From assembly GCA_017467335.1 (NCBI GenBank), contig JAFTSJ010000019.1, positions 1 through 41,608 of the forward strand: DNA of 41,608 nt, written 5' to 3'. Positions 1 to 40,954 of this stretch are shown piece by piece. Origin of the DNA: Alphaproteobacteria bacterium. Its GTDB lineage: Bacteria; Pseudomonadota; Alphaproteobacteria; CAAHEQ01; UBA3637. Below the pieces are notes generated by a model. The model was given only the letters and a program-made list of their open reading frames with translations, ran no database searches and was not told the origin of the DNA. How positions within the stretch are numbered: the first letter of the stretch is position 1; every line of letters starts with the position of its first letter. A program made the translations under genes and the position numbers.

Positions 1-636
1 CACATAAATAGAGATTTATATCAGCAAGAATGTGAAGCCTGCGGTCATCATGCATTCATCAATAAATACTGTGTTTACATAAATCCCGGTCAATCAGGTA
101 TATGCAACAATGATAGTCCGGATACAACCAAATGGTCGAATTATAAAGACGGTATCGGCGTCCTTTATCGGGATAATACAGGTGTTTGTCGTCGTTGTGA
201 TGATCAAAGTAATTCATATGCATCAACGCAAACAGAATGCGAAAGTTGTGTTGTGAATGGTGTTCAAATTCGCCGTTGGGTTGGAGGCAGTTGTATCTAT
301 GGCGGTTGTAGTGAAGGCGATACGTTTAGAACGCCGACAGGTTGCACCAGTTGTTCAACAAGTTCTGTTAAAGTGGAAACAACAGGACAAGATGCCGACT
401 TGCTTTGTAATGCGTGTCATCGGCGAATTATGACAGATGTGAATGAAACAAAATATTGCGTTCAAAAATGTGATTTGGATGAATGGCAAGATATTAACGG
501 CGACTGTTGGGGCGCAGAAACAGATGTCGGCAATAATGAAATCGGTACGGATGAATTATCGGCTCAATTATGCCGAAATGCATCACGAACACCCAATAAA
601 GATACCGCAACAGGAAAAGTTTATTGCCAACAATAA
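1..636 (+). CDS. Cysteine-rich CxxC-repeat protein, 5' truncated
   Basis: The frame is open from base 1, so the gene begins outside the window; a GTG at 253 is internal, not the start. The visible 211 residues hold about 19 cysteines, mostly as CxxC pairs. A loose repeat is visible: CEAC, CESC and CNAC are each followed 9 to 14 residues later by another Cys, and two of these units end in KYCV. Units one and three are about 125 residues apart. Closely spaced Cys pairs could bind metal or form disulfides in a secreted protein; which is unknown because the N-terminus is missing. No membrane segment is visible in this part. I do not recognise a named family. A hairpin terminator follows the stop. 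Confidence 0.75.
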   Translation, partial: HINRDLYQQECEACGHHAFINKYCVYINPGQSGICNNDSPDTTKWSNYKDGIGVLYRDNTGVCRRCDDQSNSYASTQTECESCVVNGVQIRRWVGGSCIYGGCSEGDTFRTPTGCTSCSTSSVKVETTGQDADLLCNACHRRIMTDVNETKYCVQKCDLDEWQDINGDCWGAETDVGNNEIGTDELSAQLCRNASRTPNKDTATGKVYCQQ

Positions 637-35352: not shown

Positions 35353-35361
35353 TGATATAAT
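35353..35361 (+). promoter_or_regulatory. Extended -10 promoter of the pentapeptide-repeat gene
   Basis: TGATATAAT is a perfect extended -10 element (TGnTATAAT). The expected transcript start is at about 35367-35369, coinciding with the ATG at 35369. There is no good -35 and no Shine-Dalgarno sequence, as expected for a leaderless message. Confidence 0.62.
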
Positions 35362-35368
35362 GACAAAC

Positions 35369-36976
35369 ATGATAAAAGAATTAAAAAAACCGCAAAGAAA
35401 AGATGCCTCAGAAAAAATTACGGACGAGGATATGATTTATTTCTCTCTGGGTATCGATACACGGGAATTTATTTTGCCTTCACAAAGAGGGGATTATCAT
35501 ACGGATTTTCGGGCAGTGCAATTGGTCGAAAATATTCGCCGTGGCAAGCGTATGAAACAAATGGATTTTTCAGGTGTTAATTTGAAAGGCGCCGATATTT
35601 CGGAAGGGCATTTTGAAGACTGTAATTTTAAAGGGGCGGTTTTTTATAAAACAAATGCTTCTACGTGTGATTTTACCGGCTGTTGTTTTGATGAAGCCTA
35701 TATGGAAGACAGTATTTTTGATGGCAGTGATTTCACGAATGCAACGTTTAAACGTGTGTTTTCAAAAAATAATCAGTGGAAAAATGCTTTTTTGGATGAA
35801 GAAGCCGGTCGCTATTTAACTGTTTTAGAAAAAATTATCAAGTTGATTGAGCAAGGAAAGATAGATATTCACACATTATCAAAATCTGATTTGTTGCATT
35901 TAGATATTCGCCGATTGGATTTTTCTAAAATTGATTTAGAAGATTTGGATTTATCCATGTTTGCTTTGGATGGAATCAACCTATGTGGTACATATATCGA
36001 TCCTAAACAATTGATGAGTTTGGAAGGGTGGAACAGTTATTGTTTGGATTTACGTAAAACCAAGGAAGTAACTCGGGCTCGGTTGTGTCGGCGTATTATG
36101 ACAGAACAAGAAGAAAACTTACGCCGATATGCTCAAACACAACAAAAAGCCACTGATACGATTCGAACAAAGAAATTGAAAAAACCGACCATAAAACAAG
36201 AAGGAACGGCTGATAACCGAGCTTGGGGATTAGAAAAGGTACGTCCGGAATTTGTAAAATCCGAAAAAATCCGTTCTCAAGAAGAACAAAAACGACTTCA
36301 AGAAGAACAAAATCAAAATGAACAATTGGTACGTACACAAAAAAATCAAAAAGAAAACATACATACAGATAATGACAATACGATAACAGAAACGGCGGAT
36401 CAAAATCATGGTGTTGTATCAAAAGAAGAAAGTTGTCAGAAGGGTATTTTGTTAACTCCGGATAAATCAGTTCAACCAGTTGATTTAATTGTAGCAGATA
36501 AAATTTCTACACCTATAATAGATGAAAAAAGAAAAGAACAGTTAGTTGAAAATTTGTTAAATCAAAAAAACAATAATCAAGAACAATATATTGAAAATAA
36601 AGATTTATATTGTGAAAAATCAGGCGATAAAAATATCAAAAAAGAGCCGATTAAAATTATTTCCCATGAAGATAAAAATATTGATGAAACGGTAATGTTA
36701 GTTGAAAATCCACCTTCGGAAACATCGCTTCATCCATCTGAAACGACAATTCAGCCTACGGTTTCAACAACCCCTTATCCTTATTTTTTAGATAAGAGTG
36801 AATCAACGGAAACTTTGCCATTAAAGACAGATTCTGATGATGAAACATTGCATGATATACAAAGTTCAGGGCTTTCTTTTACGGAAATGACACAGATTTT
36901 AAGGGAAAAAGGACCTTTAAAGGTGACTAGTAAATTGCCTAAAGGACGCAAAGCACGAACAAAAATGAAAGGATAA
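35369..36976 (+). CDS. Pentapeptide-repeat protein with charged linker, paired with a VirD4-like gene
   Basis: A 535-residue protein without signal peptide. Pentapeptide repeats (A/N-D/F-L/F-x-x) form a first block at about 66-141 (for example MDFSGVNLKGADIS and FEDCNFKGAVF) and a shorter second block near 185-215 (DIRRLDFSKIDLEDLDLS). A long Gln/Glu/Lys-rich, disordered-looking region follows to about 440, and the last residues are strongly basic (KLPKGRKARTKMKG). Pentapeptide repeats form a beta-helix used for binding; the target here is unknown. ATG 35369 is chosen from the promoter; 35360 is in frame but overlaps the -10. Two nt separate it from the coupling-protein gene, so they form a unit. 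Confidence 0.8.
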   Translation: MIKELKKPQRKDASEKITDEDMIYFSLGIDTREFILPSQRGDYHTDFRAVQLVENIRRGKRMKQMDFSGVNLKGADISEGHFEDCNFKGAVFYKTNASTCDFTGCCFDEAYMEDSIFDGSDFTNATFKRVFSKNNQWKNAFLDEEAGRYLTVLEKIIKLIEQGKIDIHTLSKSDLLHLDIRRLDFSKIDLEDLDLSMFALDGINLCGTYIDPKQLMSLEGWNSYCLDLRKTKEVTRARLCRRIMTEQEENLRRYAQTQQKATDTIRTKKLKKPTIKQEGTADNRAWGLEKVRPEFVKSEKIRSQEEQKRLQEEQNQNEQLVRTQKNQKENIHTDNDNTITETADQNHGVVSKEESCQKGILLTPDKSVQPVDLIVADKISTPIIDEKRKEQLVENLLNQKNNNQEQYIENKDLYCEKSGDKNIKKEPIKIISHEDKNIDETVMLVENPPSETSLHPSETTIQPTVSTTPYPYFLDKSESTETLPLKTDSDDETLHDIQSSGLSFTEMTQILREKGPLKVTSKLPKGRKARTKMKG

Positions 36977-36978
36977 AA

Positions 36979-39204
36979 ATGGTCATACGTTTCGCTCCTG
37001 AAAAACAATCAACTCGTGACTGTCTGAAATGGTGGTCATGGCGTGCTTTGGTCGGTATTGGCATTCTTTGGGGGTTATTACTTATTTTTGTTCCTTTTTC
37101 AGTGGTTATTTCACGTTATATGACGGTTGAATCGTGGTCTGTTATTCCTGACTATCTATCATTCGTTATTAACGGTGATTTAATGTTGCCTTTTCGTAAT
37201 TACGGTCAATGGATTGTTGATTATTTATTCAACGAACCCCGTCATTATAATTGGTACAGTTATTTTGCTTGGCGTATCATGTTAGTTCCGACATTTTTAT
37301 TTTTAGGATATGAATTTCTTTTATTTCATCAAAATCCGCATTATCTTTTTCCGCAAAGATTTGGGACTGGTCGTGAAGCAAATGATGAAGATATTGAAAA
37401 GATGGGGTTATTTTCGGGACAGCATTTATTATTGGGCGTTTTTGGTAAGAAAAAAATAAAAATGCCGGATACACGATCTGTTTTTTGTATCGGTTGTCCC
37501 GGTTCGGGAAAAACAATGGGGGTTGTTATTCCGGCCATATTAGAAGACAAAATATCAACAATGATTGTTCATGATCCCAAAGGTGAAATTGCTAAATTGA
37601 CCAGTGGGTACCGTTCAACTTTGGGACCGGTATTTATGATGAATTGGATGGGAAAGGATAATCTTGAAAAAAATATCAGATGGCCCTCATGGAATCCGAT
37701 TGGAGGCGAAAATCTGCCTCCGTTAAGCAGTGGACGAGAAGGATATATTGATGCTCTTGTTTCGTATTTAATTCCCGATGGTCCGTCCGGAACAGATCCA
37801 TACTGGGTTAAAACGGGGCGAGGTTGTTTGACGGGATTGACGGGTTACTTGTGTGGAAAAGTTGATCAGGCTCAAGCAAATGATTATTTCTTTTCCCGCA
37901 TTCAAAACGGGACAATGGATGAAGATGATTATGAAATTTTGATAAGTTATTATGAATCTATGCGTGATTTTCCGGAGGTTTTAAAAGCCAAAGAAATTGC
38001 TAAAAATCGAAAAATAACCATAGATAATTATCTTCCCATCGGTACTTGGAATCTTATTCCGGACAGTTGGAAAGGGCATGATGCTTGTTTTGCGATGTTG
38101 TTGGATATTATCAATAACTCTCAAATACAATATAACGCTGAAATCAGTCGCCGTCAAAAAGAACAAGATATGAGTGCGATTGGTTTAGATGCTTGGCAAA
38201 TGATTTTTGAAAATGTTGTACTTGAAACAGCATACTACGGTTATGGTCGCCGTACACTTTTGGAATTAAATCAGGTGTTAAGTTTACCTGATAAACAACG
38301 GGGATCGGTTGTTTCTATGGCGATGTCCGGTGTTAATATCTTTAAAAACTCAGCTGTTCGTTGTCGTACATCCATGAATGATTTTAATTATAATCAATTG
38401 CGAGGTATGAAGCATCCTGAAACAGGTGAATATCAACCGGTAACGATTTATATGTCCGTTCCATATGAAGATTTAAAATCATCTGTTTTATTAAGCACGT
38501 TATTTGTTAATATGTCACTTCAATATTTAATGGAATGTGGTCCGAATCAAGGCGGAGCAGGGCCGGCTTCCGTTGGTTTTATATTAGATGAATTTCAACA
38601 TATGCCATCTGTTGACGGTATAACGGATGGCATTATTTTCGGTCGGACAAAGCAAAATAAATTTTTGGTTTGTGTTCAAGATTGGCATCAAATTACGGCT
38701 AAATATGATCAAGAAACAACTGATGTTATTATGAGTTCCTCAGCAGCTAAAATTATTAAGCGACAAAACAATCCGCAAACACGGGCTCCATTGTTAAAGG
38801 GAATTGAAACACTGACAAAAGTTGTCATTTCATATGAGTCTCGGCGTGGTTATTTTGATTGGTCCGGAGATATGTTCCCCAATTCTTCGTCAAAGTGGAT
38901 TTGGAAAGATTTTAATTTATATCATCCGATAAAGAAAAAAATTAAAACGCAGTCCGATTCGGTTATTGGGGGATCCGGTATTTTAAGCATGGCTCAAGAT
39001 AAACAATTGGTTTTGTATGCCGGACATTTAGATCGACCGATTAACAAAGTCAATTCTCCTTTATGTTTTAAATATCCTGAATATAAGGCGTTAACGGCAA
39101 TTCCACCAGCCACGACAATTCCGGATTATATTCAACGAGAAGCTGATGAAGTTGGTTTAATCAGTCAAATGCACGTTTCAACAATTACTACGAATCTTTC
39201 GTAA
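36979..39204 (+). CDS. VirD4/TraG-family type IV coupling protein
   Basis: A 741-residue membrane ATPase of the kind that delivers substrates to a type IV secretion or conjugation channel. Two N-terminal membrane helices (about 24-48 and 95-118) bracket a periplasmic loop. Then come FGTGREAN, Walker A IGCPGSGKTMG (171-181), VHDPKGEIAKLT, and Walker B GFILDEFQHMP (about 532-542), followed by the CVQDWHQITAKY motif typical of TraG/VirD4. An insert with NNSQIQYNAEISRRQKEQ lies between. The AAAGGA binding site overlaps the end of the upstream gene. No other VirB-type gene is in the window, so the partner system must lie elsewhere, or the protein works alone. Confidence 0.92.
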   Translation: MVIRFAPEKQSTRDCLKWWSWRALVGIGILWGLLLIFVPFSVVISRYMTVESWSVIPDYLSFVINGDLMLPFRNYGQWIVDYLFNEPRHYNWYSYFAWRIMLVPTFLFLGYEFLLFHQNPHYLFPQRFGTGREANDEDIEKMGLFSGQHLLLGVFGKKKIKMPDTRSVFCIGCPGSGKTMGVVIPAILEDKISTMIVHDPKGEIAKLTSGYRSTLGPVFMMNWMGKDNLEKNIRWPSWNPIGGENLPPLSSGREGYIDALVSYLIPDGPSGTDPYWVKTGRGCLTGLTGYLCGKVDQAQANDYFFSRIQNGTMDEDDYEILISYYESMRDFPEVLKAKEIAKNRKITIDNYLPIGTWNLIPDSWKGHDACFAMLLDIINNSQIQYNAEISRRQKEQDMSAIGLDAWQMIFENVVLETAYYGYGRRTLLELNQVLSLPDKQRGSVVSMAMSGVNIFKNSAVRCRTSMNDFNYNQLRGMKHPETGEYQPVTIYMSVPYEDLKSSVLLSTLFVNMSLQYLMECGPNQGGAGPASVGFILDEFQHMPSVDGITDGIIFGRTKQNKFLVCVQDWHQITAKYDQETTDVIMSSSAAKIIKRQNNPQTRAPLLKGIETLTKVVISYESRRGYFDWSGDMFPNSSSKWIWKDFNLYHPIKKKIKTQSDSVIGGSGILSMAQDKQLVLYAGHLDRPINKVNSPLCFKYPEYKALTAIPPATTIPDYIQREADEVGLISQMHVSTITTNLS

Positions 39205-39313: not shown

Positions 39314-40954
39314 ATGACACCAGAAATTATTAAAAGATTATTTCCTAACCCGTTACCGACAATATCAGAAATTGAAGGTCGTTATCCGCTTAGAACATTA
39401 CCATCAGGAGCAAAGGTGACTCGGGTTGCTCCCAGTCCGACCGGTTACATGCACATTGGCGGTATTTATGCCGGTTTGGTATCTGAACGTATAGCCCACC
39501 AAAGCGGAGGTGTCTTTTTTTTACGTGTAGAAGATACGGATCAAAAACGAAAAAAAGAAGGGGCACAGGAAGTTATTTGTAATTCTTTATCTCGCTATGG
39601 TATTATTGCAGATGAAGGTGTTGATATTGATGGTAATGATTTTGGATTATATGGACCTTACACCCAAAGTAAAAGAAAAGAAATTTATCAAGCATATGCT
39701 CAAAAATTATTGGCAGACGGATTGGCCTATCCGTGTTTTTGTGCTGCGGAAGATTTAGATTTGATGAGAAAAATTCAAGAAAAACAATCTCAACGTCCCG
39801 GATATTATGCTAAATATGCGCATTGTCGTTCTTTATCTGATGATGAAATTATTGCAAATTTAGATGCCGGTAAACCATGGGTGTTGCGATTTAAATCCGG
39901 TGGTAATAATGAAAAGAAAATGTTGATTAAAGACTTAATGAAAGGTGAAATCAACATGCCGGAAAATGATTTGGATATTGTTATATTGAAAAGTGACGGA
40001 TTGCCTACATATCATTTTGCACATGTTGTTGATGATCATTTGATGGGAACAACACATGTTATTCGAGGGGATGAATGGGTATCTTCGGTACCGTTACATA
40101 TACAACTTTTTGTTGCTTTGGGGTGGAAAGCTCCTAAATATGGACATTATGCACCTTTACAAAAATTAGATAATGGCAATAAACGTAAACTTTCTAAACG
40201 CAGTGATCCCGAAGCTAATATTGTTTATTTTTGGGAAAAAGGTTATCCGGAAGACGCATTAGTTGAATACTTATTTAATTTGATTAACGCTTCTTTTGAA
40301 GATTGGCGTCGTTTGAATCCGGATAAAAAAGCATTTGATTTCCCCTTGAATTTTAATAAAATATCAAATACAGCAGGAGCTTTGTTTGATTTCCAAAAAC
40401 TGCATAGTATATCTAAAGATGTTGTTGCCAGAATGACTGCGGAAGAAGTCTATGATGCTGTATTAAATTGGGCAAAGGAATATAAGTCAGATTTTGCTCA
40501 ACGATTGATTGAACATAAAGATTATTACATTTCAATTTTAAATATTGAACGTAATATCGGTAAAAAATCTCGAAAAGATATTGTAAAGTGGGAAGATGTT
40601 GAAGCTGATACTTCTTATTTCTTTGACGATACATTTTCGGTTGATTTGGCATCATATGCTAATGAATTAAATTTAACTATTGAAGATATGAAAAAGATTT
40701 CTTCTGAATTTAAAGCATTATTTAACGTTAATGATGATAAAAACGCTTGGTTTGAAAAGATAAAGATGATTGCACAAAATCATGGTTTTGCAACGGAAAT
40801 GAAAGCGTACAAAGAAAATCCTTCATTGTACAAAGGAAATGTATCTGATGTTGCAAACGTGTTAAGAATTTTGATTACCGGACGTACGCAAAGTCCTGAT
40901 TTACATGCTATTATGCAAGTTATGGGTACGGATAAGGTACTAAGCCGATTATAA
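39314..40954 (+). CDS. gltX: Glutamyl-tRNA synthetase, long form
   Basis: Charges tRNA-Glu with glutamate in the cytoplasm. The class I signatures are VAPSPTGYMHIGG (the HIGH region, about 36-48) and KLSKRSDPE (the KMSKS loop, about 294-302). The zinc-like knuckle CFC...YAKYAHC is at about 138-169, and RVEDTDQKRKKEG is conserved. The protein has 546 residues against about 470 for usual proteobacterial GltX and begins with an extra segment (LFPNPLPTISEIEGRYPLRTLP). Both traits resemble the long GltX of Clostridia and relatives, suggesting transfer. Whether it also charges tRNA-Gln cannot be told. It has its own promoter and terminator. Confidence 0.92.
   Translation: MTPEIIKRLFPNPLPTISEIEGRYPLRTLPSGAKVTRVAPSPTGYMHIGGIYAGLVSERIAHQSGGVFFLRVEDTDQKRKKEGAQEVICNSLSRYGIIADEGVDIDGNDFGLYGPYTQSKRKEIYQAYAQKLLADGLAYPCFCAAEDLDLMRKIQEKQSQRPGYYAKYAHCRSLSDDEIIANLDAGKPWVLRFKSGGNNEKKMLIKDLMKGEINMPENDLDIVILKSDGLPTYHFAHVVDDHLMGTTHVIRGDEWVSSVPLHIQLFVALGWKAPKYGHYAPLQKLDNGNKRKLSKRSDPEANIVYFWEKGYPEDALVEYLFNLINASFEDWRRLNPDKKAFDFPLNFNKISNTAGALFDFQKLHSISKDVVARMTAEEVYDAVLNWAKEYKSDFAQRLIEHKDYYISILNIERNIGKKSRKDIVKWEDVEADTSYFFDDTFSVDLASYANELNLTIEDMKKISSEFKALFNVNDDKNAWFEKIKMIAQNHGFATEMKAYKENPSLYKGNVSDVANVLRILITGRTQSPDLHAIMQVMGTDKVLSRL

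What the first reader, a model, noticed from the sequence alone, without database searches (positions are those of the whole stretch)
35369..39204. Pentapeptide-repeat protein translationally coupled to an orphan VirD4-like ATPase
The two genes are 2 nt apart and transcribed from one promoter between lspA and gltX, in a housekeeping setting without other T4SS genes. The pentapeptide protein ends in a basic tail like those of some type IV substrates, so it could be an adaptor or cargo for the coupling protein. A conserved pair of this kind would be a little-described secretion or DNA-transfer module.
Basis: partly seen in the sequence, partly recalled or inferred. Interest (0 to 1): 0.62.

Follow-up and report, generated by a model that had tools for sequence, protein, structure and literature searches.

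The report
Pentapeptide-partnered second VirD4 coupling protein
In a group of small-genome Alphaproteobacteria, several of them gut MAGs, a second copy of the protein that loads cargo into the type IV secretion machine has been inherited for a very long time as a fixed pair with a pentapeptide-repeat protein, which points to an undescribed alternative loading complex.

Summary
The gene pair is real and its structure is as described: a pentapeptide protein (pent, 35369-36976), a 2-nt gap, then a VirD4-type coupling protein (D4p, 36979-39204), with D4p's ribosome-binding site inside the last codons of pent. "Orphan" is wrong. The same 1.32-Mb genome carries a dispersed VirB-type system (virB4, virB9, a 2171-aa virB10, virB11) and a second, canonical VirD4. 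Paired D4p genes form one clade and canonical VirD4s fall outside it, so the duplication is old. The pair occurs in f1, f38, f70, f22 and f46 (and in f49 with the contig cut at pent). D4p was never found without pent. In f1, 25 of 34 genomes have pent and 24 of those also D4p, the 25th being cut at a contig end; all 34 keep canonical VirD4. Two f46 genomes keep pent without D4p. I read the pair as an alternative coupling complex: D4p the receptor/ATPase, pent its obligate cytosolic partner. Whether pent is adaptor or cargo is unsettled. An AlphaFold fusion model gave no confident interface (pTM 0.63). No paper found describes this pair.

The parts
35353..35361 (+). extended -10 element TGATATAAT ending 7 nt before the pent ATG; implies leaderless transcription of pent
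   Evidence: TGnTATAAT 6-9 nt before a start codon in 25 of 38 pent genes versus 3 of 568 control ORFs; transcription start itself not measured
35369..36976 (+). pent: pentapeptide-repeat protein, 535 aa
   Evidence: homologs align from this ATG
35384..35401 (+). first [KR]Pxx[KR] motif (KKPQRK, residues 6-11)
   Evidence: P8 invariant in 25 pents of five families, K11 in at least 90%
35552..35797 (+). pentapeptide beta-solenoid (residues about 62-143)
   Evidence: Pfam PF00805; AlphaFold pLDDT about 90-97
35891..36004 (+). second short pentapeptide-like segment (residues 175-212, LDIRRLDFSKIDLEDLDLSMFALDGINLCG)
   Evidence: most conserved block outside the solenoid
36020..36175 (+). long helix / coiled-coil arm (residues 218-269)
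   Evidence: AlphaFold
36179..36196 (+). second [KR]Pxx[KR] motif (KKPTIK, residues 271-276)
   Evidence: present in nearly all f1 and f38 pents
36197..36973 (+). variable, largely disordered C-terminal tail ending in a basic stretch (last 25 aa net +9)
   Evidence: low pLDDT except short helices; charge test against controls
36968..36973 (+). Shine-Dalgarno AAAGGA of D4p embedded in the last two codons of pent
   Evidence: sequence; AGG/AAGG-type site in the last pent codons of nearly all homologs
36979..39204 (+). D4p: VirD4-type coupling protein paralog, 741 aa
   Evidence: Pfam PF02534/PF10412/PF12696; Foldseek best hits Cag-beta (8dol) and TrwB for the relative L012 model
37045..37110 (+). 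N-terminal transmembrane helix of D4p (residues about 23-44); a second hydrophobic stretch at residues 96-118
   Evidence: hydropathy
37492..37515 (+). Walker A GCPGSGKT
   Evidence: GKT kept in all paired D4s aligned
38578..38595 (+). Walker B FILDEF
   Evidence: Glu kept here; Asp or Asn in f1 clade 2, f38 and one f70 genome
34818..35288 (-). lspA, divergent neighbour (context only)
39314..40954 (+). gltX, downstream neighbour (context only)

Best explanation
The pair encodes an alternative type IV coupling complex. D4p is a membrane-anchored VirD4-family receptor/ATPase that arose by an old duplication and probably docks on the genome's dispersed VirB-type secretion channel beside the canonical VirD4 (docking inferred). 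Pent is its obligate cytosolic partner: made first, probably from a leaderless mRNA, then D4p translated from an RBS inside pent's last codons so both are produced together (arrangement shown, coupling inferred). Pent probably grips D4p through its conserved N-terminal and post-solenoid RPxxK segments or its basic tail, and uses its solenoid and fast-evolving disordered tail to bind and present a distinct set of substrates (inferred). Shown: pair structure, old single-origin pairing, co-occurrence with a T4SS. Not shown: binding, secretion, cargo.
For: Pent directly upstream of D4p in every D4p locus not cut by a contig end or a run of N. In 34 f1 genomes pent is in 25 and D4p in 24 of those 25; the 9 without pent have no D4p; canonical VirD4 in 34/34. 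30 paired D4s form one clade, UFBoot 99 / SH-aLRT 98; 19 canonical another, 99/97; with f46 added the paired set is still one side of a branch. VirB4 in all 22 genomes tested. VirB9, VirB10 and VirB11 in the own genome. D4p fold matches Cag-beta and TrwB. SD embedded in pent. Canonical VirD4 has its own different conserved partner genes, so two separate coupling operons coexist.
Against: No direct evidence of contact: fused AlphaFold model pTM 0.63, linker disordered. Two f46 genomes keep pent without D4p (G288, G361), and G010 has an in-frame TAG in D4p with pent intact, so pent is not useless without D4p. Adaptor versus cargo is not resolved. Walker B Glu is lost in several paired D4s, which fits poorly with a strictly needed motor.
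Confidence: 0.42

Rival explanations
1. Pent is the cargo: a secreted pentapeptide effector with a dedicated receptor, as relaxase genes often sit next to their own coupling-protein gene. D4p recognises its basic C-terminal tail and feeds it to the VirB channel.
For: Tail significantly basic: median net +7 against +1 in 581 controls, and still +4 against 0 when the last 5 residues are left out. Pent evolves fastest (pent 46%, D4p 73%, canonical VirD4 90% identity between the same two genomes). Pent kept without D4p in G288, where canonical VirD4 remains. Relaxase-T4CP gene adjacency is common (PMC12857230). A Rickettsia pentapeptide protein, cREM-4, interacts with RvhD4 (PMC11077975).
Against: Tail only +3 in f46 and +1 to +3 in some f1 members; the last residues are partly fixed by the RBS. 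D4p is never found without pent, which is unusual if it had other cargo. G361 keeps pent with no VirD4 detected at E<=1e-140.
Confidence: 0.3
2. D4p-pent is a regulator or mixed-ring subunit of the canonical VirD4 rather than a separate receptor, as CagZ regulates Cag-beta.
For: Walker B Glu replaced by Asp or Asn in f1 clade 2, f38 and one f70 genome while all canonical VirD4s keep it. Canonical VirD4 accompanies D4p in the complete genomes. Closest solved fold is Cag-beta in the CagZ-regulation entry.
Against: Walker A and overall fold kept; only about 37% identity to canonical VirD4, so mixed hexamers look unlikely; the own D4p keeps DE.
Confidence: 0.12
3. The pair is not part of protein secretion: a HerA/FtsK-superfamily membrane ATPase and scaffold with another role (DNA handling, envelope organisation or defence).
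For: No cargo known; pair sits in housekeeping context; pent kept in G361 without a VirD4.
Against: D4p is a VirD4 by profile and fold and is found only in genomes with VirB4 among those tested. No PADLOC hit. No PHROGs hit for D4p.
Confidence: 0.1
4. The pair is a conjugative remnant that moves DNA.
For: T4CP family membership.
Against: No PF03432 relaxase in the genome. f1 clade 2 and f38 share a divergent neighbour that looks like uvrA, as expected of vertical inheritance (read from sequence). Plasmid matches below 30% identity for the rows shown.
Confidence: 0.04

Closest known systems
VirD4/TrwB/Cag-beta type IV coupling proteins
   Same: Pfam families, Walker motifs, N-terminal TM region, fold
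   Different: Second, faster-evolving paralog beside a canonical VirD4, always preceded by a pentapeptide gene; Walker B Glu changed in some lineages
Dot/Icm type IV coupling complex (DotL-DotM-DotN-IcmSW)
   Same: Coupling ATPase with dedicated auxiliary proteins that select substrates (PMC7280309 and PMC7251119, titles/abstracts; PMC12857230)
   Different: No pentapeptide subunit named in those texts; here one partner gene only, and the accompanying channel proteins score as VirB-type
Cag T4SS of Helicobacter (Cag-beta, CagZ, CagF, CagY)
   Same: Closest solved fold for D4p; auxiliary protein on the coupling ATPase; giant VirB10 reminiscent of CagY (CagY from memory)
   Different: CagZ and CagF are not pentapeptide proteins (from memory); here genes are dispersed and the coupling protein is duplicated
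Rickettsiales rvh T4SS and cREM-4
   Same: Dispersed chromosomal VirB-type system in Alphaproteobacteria (dispersal from memory); cREM-4 carries a small pentapeptide repeat and interacts with RvhD4 (PMC11077975)
   Different: cREM-4 is about 950 aa, not described as next to rvhD4, and rvh is not described there with two VirD4s; homology to pent was not tested
Type VI secretion DUF2169/pentapeptide accessory proteins
   Same: Pentapeptide protein encoded as accessory of a secretion machine (PMC8747328, title/abstract)
   Different: Different machine; no sequence relation tested beyond the shared repeat

Membership tests
VirD4 type IV coupling protein | T4SS-DNA_transf / TraG-D_C domains | tested here: met
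   PF02534 2.2e-33, PF12696 2.9e-08
VirD4 type IV coupling protein | Walker A and Walker B motifs | tested here: met
   GCPGSGKT and FILDEF in the window protein; Glu to Asp/Asn in some relatives
VirD4 type IV coupling protein | N-terminal membrane anchor | tested here: met
   hydrophobic stretches at residues 23-44 and 96-118
VirD4 type IV coupling protein | T4SS channel genes in the same genome | tested here: met
   VirB4, VirB10, VirB9 and VirB11; VirB6 and VirB8 not searched in the own genome
VirD4 type IV coupling protein | Hexamer formation and substrate binding | not testable with these tools
   needs experiment
Pentapeptide-repeat protein | tandem A(D/N)LXX beta-solenoid | tested here: met
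   PF00805 1.2e-13; solenoid pLDDT about 90-97; nearest PDB pentapeptide fold 2j8i for the relative L012
Conjugative coupling module | relaxase with the coupling gene | tested here: not met
   no PF03432 match in the genome; other relaxase families not tested
Dot/Icm coupling complex | DotM, DotN, IcmS, IcmW subunits | not tested
   no Pfam match to such families for canonical VirD4 neighbours, but the subunits were not searched for directly
T4SS substrate | basic C-terminal signal | tested here: inconclusive
   basic above controls, but last residues overlap the D4p RBS and f46 tails are only +3
Anti-phage defence system | match to a known defence family | tested here: not met
   no PADLOC hit at 0.01

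The most novel reading that the evidence does not exclude
A second, parallel coupling complex for a single dispersed T4SS, built on a pentapeptide-solenoid adaptor that defines its own substrate set, inherited since before several alphaproteobacterial families separated.
Probability: 0.4. Interest if true: 0.78.

Novelty: new variant of a known kind. Interest (0 to 1): 0.6.

Why it matters
If true, one secretion channel is fed by two different loading complexes, so substrate choice is modular at the level of the coupling protein. It also adds a pentapeptide solenoid to the parts known to work with coupling proteins, and gives poorly known Alphaproteobacteria, including gut MAGs, a marker for finding T4SS substrates.

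Tried and rejected
Orphan or shuffled tra fragment: rejected, since the genome has a T4SS and the pair is old and co-inherited. Mobile element: rejected on synteny and low plasmid identity. Defence system: no PADLOC hit. Viral origin: only weak pentapeptide-repeat matches in viral contigs; PHROGs hits for pent fall on the repeat region and there are none for D4p. Complex prediction through an in-frame read-through of L012 (gap of 3 nt): both halves fold well but relative placement is not confident. PDB sequence search with D4p alone gave nothing; the profile gave Cag-beta only. Literature: one paper holds all terms pentapeptide repeat, VirD4, coupling protein and type IV secretion, and the passages read do not describe this pair. 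The library lacks most subscription journals.

Full report
Observation. Pent scores as a pentapeptide-repeat protein and D4p as a T4SS coupling protein. lspA is divergent and gltX follows; the rest of the window reads as housekeeping genes.

The gene is not orphan. The window lies in a 1.32-Mb genome (G000). It has a VirB4 on another contig (TIGR00929 4.4e-103) with a VirB3-like gene beside it (by eye). A further contig carries VirB9 (CagX plus SPOR), a 2171-aa protein with many beta-flower repeats and a TrbI/VirB10 domain, and VirB11. A second VirD4, 37% identical to D4p, sits on a third contig between partner genes that recur beside canonical VirD4 in f1, f38, f22, f49 and f70: a roughly 350-400-aa membrane-anchored protein upstream, and a roughly 200-370-aa protein and a roughly 145-aa SUKH-like protein downstream. 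No PF03432 relaxase was found.

Conservation of the pair. In all genome-contig loci with enough flank and in the relatives fetched, pent is directly upstream of D4p on the same strand. Among 34 f1 genomes at least 85% complete, pent is in 25 and D4p in 24 of the same 25; in G008 the pent hit runs to a contig end. The nine genomes without pent (all eight g3 plus G018) have no D4p, and all 34 have canonical VirD4. These are few independent events, since eight of the nine belong to one genus. Class-wide (386 genomes), profiles for pent and D4p find the pair in f38, f70, f22 and f46, and pent at a contig end in f49. Exceptions run one way only: G288 and G361 (f46) keep pent without D4p, and in G010 D4p carries an in-frame TAG. 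No D4p without pent was seen.

Age. A tree of 53 proteins puts 30 paired D4s in one clade (99/98) and 19 canonical VirD4s in another (99/97). A quick tree with f46, f151 and f67 keeps the paired set as one side of a branch (SH-aLRT 100), although f46 branches are long. Between G000 and G001, canonical VirD4 is 90% identical, D4p 73% and pent 46% (66% over the first 286 residues). f1 clade 2 and f38 share a divergent neighbour that reads as uvrA, as expected from vertical descent.

Anatomy of pent. N-terminal leader with a [KR]Pxx[KR] motif, a pentapeptide solenoid, a helix, a second short pentapeptide-like segment, a long helix, a second RPxxK motif in most f1 and f38 members, then a variable disordered tail. 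f46 pents lack the N-terminal motif by eye. The tail is basic beyond controls (the pent set there includes seven short viral-contig pentapeptide proteins, which are not basic and so lower the contrast), but the last two or three codons double as D4p's Shine-Dalgarno.

Expression. TGnTATAAT lies 6-9 nt before the start in 25 of 38 pent genes against 3 of 568 control ORFs; two of those three controls are VirD4 genes of f67. This suggests leaderless transcription; no transcript was measured.

Anatomy of D4p. Two hydrophobic stretches near the N-terminus, GKT of Walker A in every paired D4, and Walker B Glu replaced by Asp or Asn in f1 clade 2, f38 and one f70 genome. Foldseek places the fused model nearest Cag-beta (8dol) and TrwB. 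The fusion, an in-frame read-through of the relative L012 given to AlphaFold with 40 rows, gave mean pLDDT 81.3 and pTM 0.63 with residues 277-342 disordered; it does not show or exclude an interface.

Mechanism. The strongest inference is a dedicated receptor-partner complex feeding the resident T4SS. VirB4 is present in all 22 genomes tested, including those lacking D4p, so the pair is an addition to the T4SS rather than its core. Adaptor and cargo readings remain close. Adaptor: D4p is never alone, and the conserved part is the solenoid and motifs. Cargo: basic tail, fast evolution, pent sometimes kept without D4p.

Known systems. The nomenclature review describes T4CPs working with auxiliary proteins (D4Aux) and relaxase genes often next to T4CP genes, and a term search found no 'pentapeptide' in it (PMC12857230). 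Rickettsia cREM-4, with a small pentapeptide repeat, interacts with RvhD4 (PMC11077975). T6SS has pentapeptide accessory proteins (PMC8747328, title/abstract). None is this pair.

Limits.

Noticed in passing
L067 10618-17130: Giant VirB10 (2171 aa) with many beta-flower repeats; a VirB10 domain is found in 34 of 42 genomes tested, usually in a frame of about 2000 aa or more. Genomes without a hit may be assembly gaps.
   Followed up: partly
L046 6891-12217; L088-L095: Canonical VirD4 operon with conserved partners: membrane protein of about 350-400 aa upstream, a protein of about 200-370 aa and a SUKH-like protein downstream; conserved across several families.
   Followed up: partly
L002 3035-5403; L046 12254-12973: Proteins that read as ankyrin-repeat proteins beside virB4 and beside the canonical VirD4 operon: possible T4SS substrates. 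Identified by eye only.
   Followed up: no
L117 5262-7484; L118 5157-7379: f67 VirD4 genes also carry an extended -10 right before a start codon, hinting at shared leaderless expression of coupling genes.
   Followed up: no
L057 1462-4650 (G010): D4p interrupted by an in-frame TAG while pent is intact.
   Followed up: no
L002 1-2928; L046 1-588; window 1-636: Large low-complexity Thr/Pro repeat and Cys-rich proteins at contig ends; look like surface proteins.
   Followed up: no
L087 (G013): A 4000-base run of N within the stretch that should hold D4p.
   Followed up: no
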